Assembly: GCF_009938015.1 (NCBI RefSeq) | Contig: NZ_AP021884.1 | Location: 2,916,585 to 2,980,584, forward strand | DNA from: Sulfuriferula plumbiphila | GTDB taxonomy: Bacteria; Pseudomonadota; Gammaproteobacteria; Burkholderiales; Sulfuriferulaceae | Direction of reading: 5' to 3' | DNA length: 64,000 bases | Shown here: positions 27,579 to 53,646 of the stretch, one piece after another | Numbering within the stretch: position 1 is the first letter of the stretch | Layout of the letters: every line of letters begins with the position of its first letter | Program-made: the position numbers and the translations under genes | Notes under the pieces: model-generated | What the model was told of the DNA's origin: nothing | Seen by the model: only the letters and a program-made list of their open reading frames with translations | Databases searched by the model: none

Positions 27579-29747
27579 TCAGGCCGGTTCCAGCCTGGCA
27601 TACTCCAGCGCCAGCCACTTCATTCCGTTCGCGCCGCCGAAGTTGATCTGCACCCGTGTGTCGTCGCCCTGCCCTTCCACGCTGACCACCACACCCACGC
27701 CGAACTTGGCGTGGCGCACGTTCATGCCGATGCGCCACGGCGAGGTGTTGCGCTGGCGCGTGGCTGAAGCCGGCGCTGCATCACCGTGGTAAGCGCTGGA
27801 GGCTGTGGCCATGCGCCTGGCGTTGACCAGTTTGAGCAAGGCGCTGGGCAGTTCGTCGAGGAAGCGCGACGGGATGCCGTAGCGTACCTGGCCGTGCAGC
27901 ATGCGGCTTTGCGCATGGCTTAAATACAGCCGCCGGCGCGCGCGGGTGATGGCGACGTACATCAGGCGGCGTTCTTCCTCGATGCCGTCCTGCTCGTTCA
28001 TGGATTGTTCGTGCGGGAACAGGCCCTCTTCCAGTCCGCCCAGGAACACGGCGTGGAATTCCAGCCCCTTGGCGGCGTGCACGGTCATCAGTTGCAGCGC
28101 GTCGCTGCCCGCGCCGGCCTGATGGTCGCCCGCTTCCAGCGCGGCGTGGGCGAGGAAGCTGGCCAGCGGCCCGCCCGCTTCGTCGAGCTCGGCCATGGCT
28201 TCCGGGTCGTTGGCGAAGACGGTGGCGGCGTTGATCAGTTCGTTCAGGTTTTCCAGCCGGTCGGCGCCCTCTTTTTCGGCCTGGTAATGCGCGGCCAGGC
28301 CGCTCATATGCAATACATGTTCGATGGCTTCGGGCAGCGGCAAGCCCTGCGTGGCGTCCTGCATGGCCTGCATCAAGGCGACGAAACCGGGCAAGCCTTT
28401 GGCGCTGTCCTTGCTGGCGGGGGCCTTGGCGCGGGCGGCCTGCCACAGGCTCGTCCCGCCGGCCTGGGCGGCGTCGGCCAACTGTTCCAGCGTGCGCGCG
28501 CCGATGCCGCGGGTGGGGAAATTGACCACACGGCTAAACGCGCCGTCGTCATCCGGATTGGCCAGCAGGCGCAAATAGGCCAGCGCGTGCTTGATCTCCT
28601 GGCGCTCGAAAAAGCGCAGCCCGCCGTACACGCGATACGCCACCCCGGCGCTGAACAGGGCGTGCTCCAGCACGCGCGATTGCGCGTTGGAACGGTACAG
28701 CAGCGCCATGTCCATCAGCGCCGTGCCTTCGCGCTGCAGCGCTTTCACTTCCTCGACGATGAAGCCGGCTTCTTCCTGGTCATTGTATGCCTCGTACACG
28801 CGGATCGGTTCGCCCTTGCCTTCTGCCGTCCACAGATTCTTGCCCAGGCGCGACTGGTTCTGTGTGATGAGCGCGTTGGCGGCATCGAGGATGTTGCCGT
28901 GACTGCGGTAGTTCTGCTCCAGCTTGATGACGTTGTCACCTGCGTAGTCGCGCTGGAATTCATTCATGTTACCGGTATGCGCGCCACGGAAGGCGTAGAT
29001 CGACTGGTCGTCGTCACCCACCGCCATCAGCACCGATTGTGCCCCGGCGAACTGTTTCAGCCAGCGGTACTGCAGACGGTTGGTGTCCTGGAACTCGTCC
29101 ACCAGGATATGGCGAAAGCGCTCCTGATAATGCGCGCGCAACGCGTCGTTGCGCGCCAGCAACTCGTAGGAACGCAGCAGCAGTTCCGGGAAATCGGCCA
29201 CGCCCTCGCGGTTGCACTGCTCGTCGTAGGCGGCGTAAAACTCCACCAGGCGCCGCGTGTAGGGGTCGAACACCTCGACCTGCTGTGGACGCAGGCCGGC
29301 CTCCTTGTTGCCGCTGATAAAGTACTGCACCTTCTTCGGCTCGAATTTCTCGGTGTCCACGTTGAGCGCCTTGAGCAGGCGTTTGACGGCGGAGAGCTGA
29401 TCGGCGCTATCCAGAATCTGGAACAACTGCGGCAGCCCGGCCTCGCGGTGATGGGTGCGCAGCAGGCGGTTGGACAGGCCGTGAAAGGTACCCACCCACA
29501 TGCCGCGCGTGTTGATCGGCAACATCCCGGTCAACCGGGTCAGCATCTCCTTCGCCGCCTTGTTGGTGAAGGTCACCGCGAGGATGCCCAGCGGCGAGAC
29601 TTGTCCGGTTTGAATCAGCCAGGCGATGCGCGTGGTGAGCACGCGCGTCTTGCCGCTGCCGGCCCCGGCCAGGATCAGCGCCGACTGGCCCGGCAGGGTG
29701 ACGGCGGCAAGTTGCTCGGGGTTGAGCCCGTCGAGTAGGGAGGTCAT
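27579..29747 (-). CDS. uvrD: DNA helicase II (UvrD/Rep superfamily 1A)
   Basis: A 722-residue protein. The Q-motif LNPEQLAAV at residue 8 is followed by Walker A ILAGAGSGKTRVLTTRI (about 26-42), motif Ia FTNKAAKEM, motif II ILVDEFQDTN (about 219), motif III VGDDDQSIYAFRGA, motif IV LEQNYRS, and motifs V/VI TVHAAKGLEFHAVF and YVAITRARRRLYLSHAQSRM. A C-terminal Tudor-like segment, VRHAKFGVGVVVSVEGQGDD, is characteristic of UvrD/PcrA. It unwinds DNA 3'-5' in excision and mismatch repair. Transcribed away from the rhodanese gene. Confidence 0.95.
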   Translation of the reverse strand: MTSLLDGLNPEQLAAVTLPGQSALILAGAGSGKTRVLTTRIAWLIQTGQVSPLGILAVTFTNKAAKEMLTRLTGMLPINTRGMWVGTFHGLSNRLLRTHHREAGLPQLFQILDSADQLSAVKRLLKALNVDTEKFEPKKVQYFISGNKEAGLRPQQVEVFDPYTRRLVEFYAAYDEQCNREGVADFPELLLRSYELLARNDALRAHYQERFRHILVDEFQDTNRLQYRWLKQFAGAQSVLMAVGDDDQSIYAFRGAHTGNMNEFQRDYAGDNVIKLEQNYRSHGNILDAANALITQNQSRLGKNLWTAEGKGEPIRVYEAYNDQEEAGFIVEEVKALQREGTALMDMALLYRSNAQSRVLEHALFSAGVAYRVYGGLRFFERQEIKHALAYLRLLANPDDDGAFSRVVNFPTRGIGARTLEQLADAAQAGGTSLWQAARAKAPASKDSAKGLPGFVALMQAMQDATQGLPLPEAIEHVLHMSGLAAHYQAEKEGADRLENLNELINAATVFANDPEAMAELDEAGGPLASFLAHAALEAGDHQAGAGSDALQLMTVHAAKGLEFHAVFLGGLEEGLFPHEQSMNEQDGIEEERRLMYVAITRARRRLYLSHAQSRMLHGQVRYGIPSRFLDELPSALLKLVNARRMATASSAYHGDAAPASATRQRNTSPWRIGMNVRHAKFGVGVVVSVEGQGDDTRVQINFGGANGMKWLALEYARLEPA

Positions 29748-49241: not shown

Positions 49242-50369
49242 ATGGACGCCCTCAAAGCCTTGCACGATCTGCTGCGCCTGATGCTCAGCAAAAAAGCCTC
49301 GGATTTATTCATCACGGCGGGCTTTCCTCCCGCCATCAAGGTGGACGGCAGGATCGCGCCGGTATCCAACCAGACCCTCACCCCGGCACACACGCGCGAG
49401 TTTGCCCGCGCGCTGATGAATGATCGTCAGTGGGCAGATTTTGAAGCGACCCATGAGAGCAACTTCGCCATTTCACCGCCGGAAATCGGCCGCTTTCGCG
49501 TCAATGCCTTTGTCCAGCAGGCTCGGGTTGGGCTGGTGTTGCGAACCATCACCACCCGGATTCCCAAGTTCGAGGAACTCAACCTGCCGCCGGTGCTCAA
49601 GGATGTGGCCATGGTCAAGCGCGGCCTGGTGATTTTTGTCGGCGGCACCGGCTCGGGCAAATCCACTTCGCTCGCGGCGATGGTCGGCTTCCGCAACGAG
49701 AACGCCCAGGATCACATCATTACCATCGAAGACCCGGTGGAATACGTCCATGAACACAGGAAATCCATCATCACCCAGCGCGAAGTCGGCGTGGATACCG
49801 ATAACTGGTTTACCGCATTGAAAAACACCCTGCGCCAGGCACCCGACGTAATCCTGATCGGCGAGGTGCGCGACCGGGAAACCATGGAATACGCCATCGC
49901 CTTCGCCGAAACCGGCCACCTGTGCCTGACCACGCTGCACGCCAACAGCGCCAACCAGGCGCTGGACCGCATCATCAACTTCTTCCCGGAAGATCGCCGC
50001 CAGCAGTTGCTGATGGACCTGTCGCTCAACCTCAAGTCGTTTATCTCGCAGCGCCTGATCGCCCGAAAAGGCACGCCGGGACGCGTCGCCGCAGTCGAGA
50101 TTCTGCTCAACTCCCCGCTGATTTCGGAACTGATTTTCAAAGGCGAGGTTCACGAGATCAAGGAGATCATGTCAAAGTCGCGCGAACTGGGCATGCAGAC
50201 TTTCGACCAATCTCTGTTCGACCTCTACGAGGCGGGCATGATCAGCTACGAGGATGCCCTGCGCAACGCCGATTCCCTCAACGACCTCAGGCTGAAGATC
50301 AAGCTGCAAGGCCAGGAATCCAGAGAGCGCGACATTATGTCGGGACTGGATCACCTGGACATCGTATAG
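49242..50369 (+). CDS. pilU: Twitching motility ATPase PilU
   Basis: A 375-residue PilT paralogue. N-domain LHDLLRLMLSKKASDLFITA; Walker A LVIFVGGTGSGKSTSLAAMV (about 126-145) with GGTGSGKS rather than the PilT GPTGSGKS; Walker B APDVILIGEVRDRETMEYAI (about 199-218); longer C-terminus ending SGLDHLDIV. PilU supports PilT during forceful retraction. It follows pilT after a repeat-bearing 207-bp gap. The following 50370-50594 contains no gene or site I can recognise. Confidence 0.95.
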   Translation: MDALKALHDLLRLMLSKKASDLFITAGFPPAIKVDGRIAPVSNQTLTPAHTREFARALMNDRQWADFEATHESNFAISPPEIGRFRVNAFVQQARVGLVLRTITTRIPKFEELNLPPVLKDVAMVKRGLVIFVGGTGSGKSTSLAAMVGFRNENAQDHIITIEDPVEYVHEHRKSIITQREVGVDTDNWFTALKNTLRQAPDVILIGEVRDRETMEYAIAFAETGHLCLTTLHANSANQALDRIINFFPEDRRQQLLMDLSLNLKSFISQRLIARKGTPGRVAAVEILLNSPLISELIFKGEVHEIKEIMSKSRELGMQTFDQSLFDLYEAGMISYEDALRNADSLNDLRLKIKLQGQESRERDIMSGLDHLDIV

Positions 50370-50594
50370 CCAGCCGCTATTGCAAATCCTGTGTTGGAAA
50401 TTTTGTGGCGATGCTCCCGCGCCATCCTCGGGTGTCGCCTGGCGAACACTGGTGTTCGATAGACTGCTATAACGGATGTTTGTCTCGAGCCGTGAGGCAG
50501 CGCCAGTCATCACATGGCAGGATAAAAATGTTGCAATACAAGACTTGGCACACAGGCATCAGTGAAAAGCAGTGGATAGCATAGCTGCTGATTT

Positions 50595-50832
50595 AACCTA
50601 GAAACCGCAGTTGGACGCGCCCGATGGTGCGTCTGGGCGTGTGGCTGCCGCGAAGCAACGAGGCGGCAGGCCGGGGCCTGCAACGAGGCGCGACAAAGGC
50701 AGGCGCGCGACCGGACGTACCGGCGGGCGCGTAGCGATGTCACCCAGAAGGTGAATGCGAACGAAGGCGGAACACTCAGTATTCATGCGGCTCTCATGAG
50801 GGAAATGAGCGGTCAACTACGGTTTTTAGGTT
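50595..50832. mobile_element. MITE-like element with 21-bp terminal inverted repeats
   Basis: The left end AACCTAGAAACCGCAGTTGG (50595-50614) and the reverse complement of the right end (50812-50832) AACCTAAAAACCGTAGTTGA differ at only 2 of the first 19 positions. The 238-bp interior is GC-rich with nested hairpins, e.g. TGCCGC...GCGGCA at 50645-50668 and GGGCCTGC...GCAGGCGC at 50674-50706. It has no transposase; a 72-codon frame on the minus strand inside it is not convincingly coding. A target duplication is not clear (TTTAA-like bases on both sides). It ends 33 bp before the GGDEF/EAL start. Confidence 0.72.
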
Positions 50833-50865
50833 TAAGCCTCTGCACGATTAACAAGGAATATCACA

Positions 50866-53646
50866 TTGGGAAAATTTACGTTTTCCGGAGTTCGGGCACG
50901 GGTACTGCTCCTGGTGGCACTCGCGGTTGCGCCATGGCTGGCGATCACCATTTACCATGCTGTTGAAGAACGCCGCCTTGCGGTCGATGCCGCGCAGGAA
51001 AACGCACTGCAGCTGGCGCGTCTCATTTCCTTCGACCAGCGGGAAACCATTAGCCGTTCGCGCGGCCTTCTGCAGGCATTATCCACTTTTCCGGAAATCA
51101 GGGATGGCGCACCGGCTGAGTGTCGGCTGCGGCTGGCACACATGCTCGACAGCACGCAAAGCTACGCCAATATCGGCGTAGCAGACGCGCACGGCGACCT
51201 GTTGTGTGACGCCATAGCGACCCGGAAACCGATCAATTATAGCGACCGCGGCTGGTTCCGTGAGGCACTCAAAACCCGGCGCTTTGTCATCGGCACTCTC
51301 ACCATCAGCAGGACCACCGGCAAACCCGTCATCGTAACCGCCCTGCCGATATTCGATACGCAAGGGGCGGCGCACCGGATCATTTTCACCTCTATCGATA
51401 TCGGATGGCTCGAGCACCTCCTGCAACAGGTCAGGCTACCCGCAGGCACGGCAGTCAGCGTGATGGATGCCAATGGCGTCATCCTGGCGCGGCACCCGGA
51501 TGGACAGAAATTCGCGGGCAAGCTCAATCCGCTAGGCGCGCTGGTTCTGGCTATCCTGGCAAGGAAAGAAGAGGGCATCGGCCAGGGAAAGGGGATAGAC
51601 GGCATCACCCGGCTGTTTGCCTATCATCGTTTGTTCGAAAACCCCGCGACAGCTTCCGCTTACGTCAGTGTCACCACCCCGACCGATATCCTGTTTGCCC
51701 GAAGCAATCGCCTGTTTGCCAGAGATATAGTCATTTTGGGGCTGGCAACCGCATTGATATTCATCCTGGTATGGTTTGGCACCAACATTCTGGTACTGGG
51801 CAAAATGAAGGCGCTGATTCACGCCACCAAACGGATTGCACACGGCGATTTCAGCACGCGCACCCAAATCCAGGGATCAGGCGAATTAAGCGAACTGGCG
51901 CGGACTTTTGACAGCATGGCGCAGTCACTGGAGCTGTTGTTCCAGCAAAGCCAGCACGTCATGGAGGTGATGCCGGAAGCCGTCATTGTTTCCGCCAGCA
52001 GCGGCAAGATCGTGACGGTCAACGCCCAGGCCGAAAAATTATTCGGTTATACCCGCAGTGAAATGATCGGACTATCGATCGAAGCCCTGGTGCCGGAACG
52101 CTTCCGCGCCGCACACACCGCTCATCGCAGCGCATATATAACGCTGGCAACGCCCGCAGTGAGAATCATGGGAGAAGGGCGGGAACTGTTCGCCCGCAGA
52201 AAGGACGGCACCGAATTTGCCACTGAAATCAGTCTGGGCCCCTTAAAGACGGAAGATGGCTATTTCGTGATTAGCGCGGTACGCGACGTCAGCGAGCGCA
52301 AACAATTCGAGACCCGCATACTACACCAGGCGACCCATGATCCGCTGACCAGCCTGCCCAACCGTATCCTGTTCCACGACATTCTTGCTCACGCCATGAC
52401 CCGCGCCCTGCGCACGGAAAAACTGCTGGCGATCCTGTTTCTTGATCTGGACGAATTCAAAAACATTAACGACACGCTCGGTCACGAATACGGCGACATC
52501 CTGCTGAAGGAAATGGCGCAACGGCTGACTGCGACATTGCGCAGGGATGATTTGATCGCGCGCGACGATGCCCTTGTCGCCCGCCAGGGCGGCGACGAAT
52601 TCACCATCCTGCTGCAAGGCATTTCGGTCGTGGATAACATTATCCAGATCGCGGGGAAAATACTTGCTGCGGTTTCCCGGCCTTTCATCGCAGACAACCA
52701 TGAAATGCATATGACGGCGAGCATCGGCATCACCATATTTCCGTTTGATGACACCGATATCCAGAATCTGTTACGCAACGCCGACACCGCCATGTATCGC
52801 GCCAAGGAAAACGGAAAAAACAATTTTCAGTTTTACACGGCGGGAATGAATCTGCGCATTCGTGAGCGCATGGAAATTGAAAACGGGCTGCGCCATGCGC
52901 TGGAAAGAGACGAGCTGGTGTTGCACTACCAGCCACAAGTGAATATCGGGAGCGGGAAAATGGTCGCCGTGGAGGCACTGCTGCGCTGGGCGCATCCTGA
53001 AAAAGGCCTGATCCCGCCCGACAAATTCATTCCGGTGGCGGAAGAAAGCGGCCTGATCGTGCCCATCGGGGAATGGGTATTGCGCACCGCCTGCCGGCAA
53101 AACAAAGTCTGGCAGGATATGGGTTTGCCGCATATCCGCATGGCGGTAAACCTGTCCGCACGCCAATTCCGGCAGCCCCATCTGCGGGTAGTGGTGGCCA
53201 AGGCCATGGAGGATGCGGGCCTTGACCCCTATTCAGACAGTCTGGAGCTGGAAGTGACCGAAAGCGTCATCATGAAGGACATGGAGGGAACCATTAACAC
53301 ACTCAACAAACTGCATGAAATGGGGGTGCGTCTTTCCATTGACGATTTCGGCATGGGCTACTCCAGCCTGAGCTATTTAAAGCGTTTTCCGATCAATACG
53401 CTCAAAATCGACCAGTCCTTTGTCCACGACATCACGACCGATGCCGACGATGCCGCCATTGCCGCCACCATCGTCACATTGGGGCACAGCCTGAAATTGA
53501 ACGTGATTGCCGAGGGGGTGGAAACTGCAGAACAACTGGCGTTATTGCGCGAGATGCAATGTGACGAAATCCAGGGCTACCATTTCAGCAGACCGCTGCC
53601 AGCCGAAGAGATGGAAAGACTCCTGCAACAAGAACGACGCCTGTAA
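50866..53646 (+). CDS. Membrane-bound Cache-HAMP-PAS-GGDEF-EAL cyclic-di-GMP protein
   Basis: A 926-residue protein from TTG 50866 (AAGGA 10 bp upstream). Transmembrane helix about 12-30, periplasmic Cache-like sensor about 31-280, second helix about 288-310, HAMP about 312-365, PAS about 370-480. GGDEF domain about 490-650 with intact [11 protein letters not shown]; the usual RxxD inhibitory site is not in register because of an extra RDDALV-type stretch before GGDEF. EAL domain about 670-920 with [37 protein letters not shown] and EGVET all intact. It probably both makes and degrades c-di-GMP, tuning pilus or attachment behaviour; placement after pilT/pilU supports this (inference). Confidence 0.93.

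What the first reader, a model, noticed from the sequence alone, without database searches (positions are those of the whole stretch)
50595..50832. 238-bp MITE-like element upstream of a c-di-GMP enzyme gene
Terminal inverted repeats of about 21 bp (17 of the first 19 positions match), a GC-rich hairpin interior and no transposase. It ends 33 bp before a TTG-started GGDEF/EAL gene and could supply its promoter or leader structure. I cannot name the family.
Basis: partly seen in the sequence, partly recalled or inferred. Interest (0 to 1): 0.65.

Follow-up and report, generated by a model that had tools for sequence, protein, structure and literature searches.

The report
Mobile element sharing a conserved hairpin
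This is one copy of a small transposon without its own transposase, and its interior folds into a hairpin that also turns up in several otherwise unrelated small transposons, which suggests that they share a hidden folded part with a common job, probably as RNA.

Summary
The element is 234 bp (window 50597-50830) between TTTAA target duplications. Its site is empty in a relative, and the home genome holds 14 places with copies or fragments. Its ends and 5-bp NTNAN target match IS1380-family insertion sequences; on a Polaromonas plasmid such an IS, one end matching at 16 of 17 positions, lies 358 bp from a copy. It is thus a MITE most likely moved by IS1380-family transposases. The surprise is inside. 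Copies from many proteobacteria keep about 234 bp and one long hairpin with compensatory changes at 33 of 33 pairs of its main helix; G-T pairs on one strand far outnumber A-C. A covariance model built only from this family also finds the hairpin's inner part (about 50 nt; nearly fixed loop AAGGC/AACGCN) in MITEs with other ends, including two further MITE types in the same genome. It was found in no IS1380 element searched and matches no Rfam family. Most likely it is a structured RNA module carried by MITEs; folded single-stranded DNA is not excluded. In the window it lies in sense in the leader region of a GGDEF/EAL gene, whose presumed ribosome-binding site is outside the element. No promoter was found inside it.

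The parts
50592..50596 (.). left target-site duplication TTTAA
   Evidence: identical 5-bp flanks in 39 of 58 paired copies elsewhere
50597..50613 (+). left terminal inverted repeat CCTAGAAACCGCAGTTG
50614..50649 (+). 5' arm of the long hairpin (stem A)
50647..50700 (+). inner hairpin module (core) with the internal-loop variant GCGAA/GACAAA of the general AAGGC/AACGCN
   Evidence: (found at E=1.3e-5 in the window by a model built without own-genome copies)
50698..50732 (+). 3' arm of stem A
50731..50736 (+). conserved GTAGCG at the end of stem A
50740..50754 (+). short hairpin B, TCACC-loop-GGTGA
50755..50808 (+). variable region between hairpin B and the right end
   Evidence: alignment
50814..50830 (-). 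right terminal inverted repeat (CCTAAAAACCGTAGTTG on the - strand), preceded by the conserved GCGGT at 50809-50813
50831..50835 (.). right target-site duplication TTTAA
50853..50858 (+). AAGGAA, presumed ribosome-binding site of the downstream gene, outside the element and conserved in G007
50866..53646 (+). downstream gene (926 aa; dCache, HAMP, PAS, GGDEF, EAL); host gene, not part of the element

Best explanation
Shown: the feature is a 234-bp element without a transposase, of a multicopy family found in many proteobacteria, with the ends and 5-bp NTNAN target of IS1380-type insertion sequences. Shown: its interior keeps one secondary structure while the sequence changes, and the fold holds far more G-T than A-C on one strand, which points to a single folding strand. 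Shown: the inner hairpin, with a nearly invariant internal loop (C-AAGGC / AACGCN-G), recurs in MITEs that have quite different ends. Inferred: IS1380-family transposase moves the element in trans, and the inner hairpin is a module that helps MITEs in the host independently of the transposase. Inferred, and the most likely reading: it acts as RNA in read-through transcripts, presenting a loop that a host RNA-binding or RNA-processing factor recognises. The many MITEs with two modules in opposite orientation would then present a correctly oriented one whichever strand is transcribed. In the window the element lies in sense in the leader region of a c-di-GMP gene, where it would form a stable leader hairpin.
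For: Copies: 14 places in the own genome; the terminal repeat, one mismatch allowed, in 18 of 61 genomes (own included), 104 matches against 10 for the reversed control. Length: 40 of 58 paired copies are 232-238 bp. Target duplications: 39 of 58 identical. Orthologous site without the element in G007. IS1380 link: PF13701 above its cut-off in the own genome with an end matching 15 of 17; an exact 17-bp end on an IS1380-type remnant in G051; ten 1639-bp relatives in G085, 8 of 10 with identical 5-bp duplications; a Polaromonas IS with one end matching 16 of 17, a TTAAA duplication and a MITE copy 358 bp away. Fold: 33 of 33 pairs of the main helix change on both sides, covariation 0.608 against 0.196 shuffled and at most 0.145 slid. 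Wobble: G-T 249 against A-C 26 in stem A; 188 against 41 on pairs predicted from both strands. Module elsewhere: R1, built only from this family, hits MITEs with other ends; core covariation 0.832 against 0.220 shuffled; wobble 144 against 17, 129 against 17 when every core with anything like a CCTA end nearby is left out, and 59 against 16 with a pairing criterion blind to strand. Orientation: 49 of 50 neighbouring core pairs are opposed.
Against: No expression data. No promoter or terminator found inside the element. Crude ORF calling on 72 copies shows no leaning towards read-through: the upstream ORF runs with the element in 23 and against it in 34, the downstream ORF in 36 and 34, the rest unassigned. 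G-T is also tolerated in DNA, and the + strand folds better with DNA parameters too, in 52 of 52. The sequences share ancestry, so counts are not independent. No transposase was linked to the AGGGCC-type ends. The Polaromonas and own-genome transposases score below the NCBIfam IS1380 cut-off (155.6 and 108.7 against 180). Hairpin B shows no wobble asymmetry (8 against 7). Of the 80 loci, 29 gave no core match at E<=0.001, both Thiobacillus denitrificans loci among them, so not every copy keeps the module.
Confidence: 0.6

Rival explanations
1. The module works as single-stranded or extruded DNA: a hairpin on one strand is bound by a host protein and helps a very short element to transpose or bring its ends together.
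For: The + strand also folds better with DNA parameters in 52 of 52 copies. Two-module MITEs carry the hairpins in opposite orientation in 49 of 50 cases, so both strands seem to matter. No promoter inside the element and no leaning towards read-through direction.
Against: A cruciform exposes both strands, so G-T on one side is A-C on the other and strong asymmetry is not expected unless one arm alone is recognised. Own-genome copies that lack the apical part (208-209 bp, three) or most of stem A (134-145 bp, three) still have identical 5-bp flanks in 5 of 6 cases, although the deletions may be later than the insertions.
Confidence: 0.25
2. The pairing is kept by a mutational process (template switching that mends quasi-palindromes), not by selection.
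For: Long imperfect palindromes can be corrected arm to arm (recalled, no call). The terminal repeats also co-vary.
Against: The internal loop is among the best conserved parts and is shared across MITEs with unrelated arms. Arm-to-arm correction does not predict strand-specific wobble or the tandem G-A steps seen by eye.
Confidence: 0.08
3. An ordinary MITE whose interior has no function; the similarity of interiors between MITE types is recombination or chance.
For: Deleted copies persist, and 29 of 80 loci gave no core match (some are cut off by the end of the stored locus). Recombination between MITEs in one genome is easy.
Against: A length near 234 bp and one fold are kept across many genera. 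The same module sits between at least five kinds of ends. R1 hits 67 of 369 genomes at E<=1e-4, own included.
Confidence: 0.05

Closest known systems
IS1380-family insertion sequences and MITEs derived from ISs
   Same: Ends beginning CCTA with CAGTT, 5-bp target duplication of NTNAN type, no transposase in the small element.
   Different: Not a simple internal deletion of the IS: by eye, similarity to the IS1380 ends stops about where the terminal repeat stops, and R2 found the module in none of the IS1380 elements searched.
Correia/NEMIS elements (Neisseria), ERIC, and QMITE1/2 of Coxiella burnetii
   Same: Small multicopy elements, largely between genes, whose transcripts fold; QMITEs give rise to small RNAs (PMC5896051, abstract and passages seen). 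Correia/NEMIS and ERIC are recalled.
   Different: Those are defined by their own ends (QMITE1 was found in one species only, per the passages seen). Here the same inner hairpin is shared by MITEs with different ends across many genera.
REP / RAYT palindromes
   Same: Enterobacterial REPs listed in PMC2817692 (passages seen) contain GATAAGGCG..CGCCGCATC, which resembles part of the loop strands.
   Different: The REPs in that table are about 20-35 nt with a GTAG-like head 5' of the palindrome. Here there are terminal repeats and target duplications, and GTAG follows the stem.
MITEPye1 of Paracoccus yeei (IS1182-type ends)
   Same: A MITE with a predicted RNA fold and a proposed effect on co-transcribed genes (PMC11578231, passages seen).
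   Different: Other IS family; in the passages seen the fold is a prediction for one element, without covariation.

Membership tests
MITE | under 500 bp, terminal inverted repeats, no transposase | tested here: met
   234 bp, which can hold at most 78 codons; ends match 15/19 and 19/24
MITE | target-site duplication and empty site | tested here: met
   TTTAA on both sides; orthologous site in G007 without the element, though the flanking DNA there has diverged and the exact old target is not readable
MITE | many dispersed copies | tested here: met
   14 places in the own genome
IS1380-driven element | ends shared with an IS that encodes an IS1380-family transposase | tested here: met
   G051 17 of 17 (other end 14 of 17); Polaromonas 16 of 17 (other end 12 of 17); own genome 15 of 17 at one end. 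PF13701 over its cut-off for the own-genome gene; NCBIfam IS1380 is the best NCBIfam model but below its cut-off in both proteins tested
IS1380-driven element | same target type | tested here: met
   5-bp NTNAN for MITE copies and for 8 of 10 G085 IS copies
IS1380-driven element | mobilisation in trans by that transposase | not testable with these tools
   needs a transposition assay
REP/RAYT | GTAG/GGAG head 5' of a short palindrome, no terminal repeats or target duplication | tested here: not met
   terminal repeats and duplications present; GTAG lies 3' of stem A
any Rfam 15 family | match to a curated RNA family | tested here: not met
   0 matches at E<=5 for window 50300-51100; for 20 loci two matches at E<=1, both far below their gathering scores
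functional structured RNA | compensatory base changes above controls | tested here: met
   shared ancestry is not corrected for
functional structured RNA | transcribed and active as RNA | not testable with these tools
   no expression data

The most novel reading that the evidence does not exclude
A compact folded RNA module of about 50 nt with a nearly fixed internal loop is shared by MITEs of several unrelated transposon types across a phylum. It would be a part used in common by parasitic elements with different transposases, acting on a host RNA-binding or RNA-processing factor, and often installed in opposite orientations so that one copy is always readable.
Probability: 0.45. Interest if true: 0.87.

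Novelty: new variant of a known kind. Interest (0 to 1): 0.74.

Why it matters
MITEs are usually classed by their ends, and their interiors get little attention. Here the interior is shared between MITEs with different ends and, as far as could be read, different targets, so a host interaction independent of the transposase may explain their success. That is directly testable: the module is short, defined by a model, and present in named cultured strains (Ottowia beijingensis, Denitromonas halophila, Methylocaldum sp. 14B, Ramlibacter sp.; Azotobacter chroococcum). Each insertion is a natural experiment on the gene beside it, including the c-di-GMP gene here.

Tried and rejected
A full IS in G013 (L045, 1776 bp between matching ends) first looked like the autonomous partner. 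Its transposase is weakly IS4-like, below the Pfam and NCBIfam cut-offs, and the sequence reads as that IS nested inside a MITE copy; R2 finds the MITE core in it.

A promoter supplied by the element: rejected for lack of any site inside it (by eye also no TATAAT-like box at the right distance from the inward TTGACC of the right end).

Read-through direction as the source of selection: crude ORF calls gave no support. A first version mis-assigned orientation because the ends are palindromic and was dropped.

Partner transposase of the AGGGCC-type MITEs: seven PF13358 loci were found in three of eight genomes. Four of the seven were inspected and showed no matching ends. 23 of 36 such MITEs have T before and A after the repeat, which fits a TA target, but this is not settled. 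A listing that required TA beforehand is not used as evidence.

Helix 3 (hairpin B) was entered in the wrong register; its five pairs are inside the whole-structure scores quoted, and of the helices only 1 and 2 are used. A weak R1 match at 28669-28760 (E 0.024) was set aside as chance; the stretch was looked at but not tested further.

Rows dropped before counts: 23 of 81 right ends without a left end, 11 of them within 240 bp of the end of the stored locus; 9 of 61 full-length copies as 90% identical or more to another; 2 of 74 copies without a clear orientation; 44 of 126 core matches as 85% identical or more to another. In one search, 42 of the 144 G-T cells lie in one column near the tip. 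In one search, 15 of the 26 A-C cells lie in one column near the tip. The class label uses a loose end pattern and marks several AGGGCC-type MITEs as near a CCTA end by chance; leaving all of these out gives 73 cores, 129 to 17.

A likeness of one loop strand to the BOX-A1R primer was recalled and not tested. Integron attC sites were considered from memory only.

Literature: text strings of the ends and of the core were searched and topic terms. No title or abstract start shown described this family, but most subscription papers are not in that library and three lists were cut (15 of 125, 30 of 222, 12 of 50). Passages were seen in PMC4853749, PMC10969869, PMC11578231, PMC2817692 and PMC5896051. 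Other papers were seen only in search listings, among them PMC2674063 on conserved RNA folds between genes of Borrelia plasmids.

Full report
What is there. The element proper is 50597-50830, 234 bp, with TTTAA on both sides. It sits between a gene with a T2SSE domain (pilU-like, my naming) and a gene for a protein with dCache, HAMP, PAS, GGDEF and EAL domains. In G007, a genome of the same genus, the two genes are adjacent in the same order without the element, and the AAGGAA and TTG start are the same. The intergenic DNA around the site has diverged, so the exact old target is not readable there. The insertion is therefore in the intergenic leader region, in sense, and the presumed ribosome-binding site is the host's own.

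Copies. The own genome has 18 matches at 14 places. By length of the pairs found, four are full (234 bp), three are 208-209 bp and three are 134-145 bp; the other four are partial. The 208-209-bp copies lack 25-26 bp between direct repeats at the hairpin tip, and the shortest copies lack most of stem A. The terminal repeat, one mismatch allowed, occurs in 18 of 61 genomes (own included): 104 matches against 10 for the reversed control pattern, so genomes with a single match are uncertain. Of 81 right ends there, 58 had a left end, and 40 of these 58 pairs span 232-238 bp; 39 of 58 have identical 5-bp flanks. The flanks mostly fit a palindromic NTNAN target (TTNAA, ATNAT, GTNAC, CTNAG). R2 (below) finds the core in 51 of the 80 loci, among them Ottowia, Denitromonas, Ramlibacter, Methylocaldum, Thiohalocapsa and a MAG labelled Desulfobulbus, which could be mis-binned; it finds none in the two Thiobacillus denitrificans loci. 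Some of the 51 helped to build R2.

What moves it. The only IS1380-type gene found in the own genome (PF13701 over its cut-off; NCBIfam IS1380 108.7 bits against a cut-off of 180) has an end TTCAA-CCTAAAAATCTCAGTTGAC 66 bp upstream of the reading frame; the gene is broken by a change of frame (by eye). In G051 an IS1380-type remnant starts with exactly the 17-bp MITE repeat. In G085 ten 1639-bp copies, about 50% identical in protein to the own-genome one over the query, end in CCTATTTCCGGCAGTTGAC and CCTAAATCCGGCAGTTAC, and 8 of 10 have identical 5-bp flanks of the same type. On a Polaromonas sp. P1-6 plasmid a 1630-bp IS with an annotated transposase (IS1380 model E=1.5e-45, 155.6 bits, cut-off 180) has one end CCTAGAAACGGCAGTTAGCC (16 of 17) and a weaker other end (12 of 17), is flanked by TTAAA, and lies 358 bp from a 234-bp MITE copy. 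Mobilisation by an IS1380-family transposase is thus well supported, though not shown in action.

The fold. Fifty-two copies under 90% identity were aligned. Stem A changes sequence but not pairing: 33 of 33 pairs of helix 1 have changes on both sides, 93.4% of cells pair, and covariation of the whole structure is 0.608 against 0.196 after shuffling and at most 0.145 when slid (this includes five misentered hairpin-B pairs, which can only lower it). On the element's + strand, G-T pairs outnumber A-C 249 to 26 in stem A, and 34 to 7 over the 17 terminal-repeat pairs (summed). On pairs predicted from both strands the ratio is 188 to 41, with 39 columns leaning to G-T and 8 to A-C. The + strand is the more stable RNA in 51 of 52 copies and the more stable DNA in 52 of 52. 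Wobble pairs therefore point to one folding strand but do not by themselves tell RNA from DNA.

The shared module. A covariance model from these copies alone (R1) found matches at E<=1e-4 in 67 of 369 genomes of the class, own included. Many matches covered only the inner hairpin and lay in MITEs with other ends: AGGGCCTGTTAACACT, TATACCCGTC, TATACCCAAAGCG and AGTGTCCTTTAACGC. A second model of the inner hairpin (R2), built from both kinds, found it in 105 of 398 genomes of the phylum, own included (matches per genome are capped). Further ends include AGAACCTATTTCAG and AGGGTCTGTTGACGTT on plasmids of Azotobacter chroococcum and Pseudomonas aeruginosa, with AGGGCCTGTTGACGTT on one of Halomonas. 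In the own genome two further MITE types carry it: one with ends AGG(A/G)CTCGTT(C/A)ATGAATAA at two places read in full, and one with ends near CTAGTGGTCTGCTTTCGAAAT. The stretch from CAAGGC to AACGC is 51 nt in 29 of 38 rows. In 82 core matches under 85% identity, from loci mostly with AGGG-type ends and some with ends not determined, the loop strands CAAGGC and AACGCNG are nearly invariant while arms and tip covary (controls for the seed alignment). G-T against A-C is 144 to 17, or 102 to 16 without one tip column; it is 59 to 16 over 58 cores when pairs were chosen by a criterion blind to strand, with 29 cores leaning to G-T, 6 to A-C and 23 tied. Among 50 neighbouring pairs of cores 49 are in opposite orientation (at least one place, L276/L302, was fetched twice). 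In the window's copy and its close kin the loop bases are exchanged between the strands (GCGAA/GACAAA), yet R2, built without such copies, still finds the window core (E=1.3e-5). Two steps of tandem G-A pairs lie beside the loop in many copies and are replaced by Watson-Crick pairs in others (by eye, alignments).

Where it is not. R2 was run on 21 sources: 20 holding an IS1380-type gene (19 places) and the G013 nested IS. Its two matches were the MITE copy on the Polaromonas plasmid and the MITE around the nested IS. Rfam has no matching family at its own thresholds. One exact core pattern hit a single viral contig.

Reading. The element as such is a MITE of a known kind. What is unusual is a folded module, kept by selection as far as covariation tells, and shared by MITEs that probably depend on different transposases (NTNAN target for IS1380-type ends; flanks that fit TA for AGGGCC-type ends, 23 of 36, transposase unknown). 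A role in the host that does not depend on the transposase is the simplest account. I favour RNA because one strand folds, because non-Watson-Crick steps and a nearly fixed loop are kept, and because opposed modules would serve either direction of transcription. Against this stand the lack of expression data, of an internal promoter and of any leaning towards read-through direction.

Limits. Gene calls around copies were crude. Sequences share ancestry. The search for earlier description covered only the open library.

Noticed in passing
G000:C1:476258-477471 (L044): The only IS1380-type transposase gene found in the own genome appears broken by a change of frame, so the MITEs may at present have no active partner there.
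   Followed up: partly
L288, L289 (G000:C1:3174744-3175011 and 250835-251101): A second MITE type in the same genome with ends AGG(A/G)CTCGTT(C/A)ATGAATAA and two opposed core hairpins.
   Followed up: partly
L290 (G000:C1:1329123-1330202): A third core-bearing MITE type, ends near CTAGTGGTCTGCTTTCGAAAT, about 171 bp.
   Followed up: no
L045 (G013:C1:1497808-1499583): A weakly IS4-like insertion sequence nested inside a copy of the MITE.
   Followed up: partly
   Followed up: no
L250 512-595: The only neighbouring core pair in the same orientation, possibly an inverted hairpin.
   Followed up: no
own genome, copies at G000:C1:1558675, 622003, 3101897: Three copies share a deletion of 25-26 bp between direct repeats at the hairpin tip, as if a deleted form had itself spread.
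   Followed up: partly
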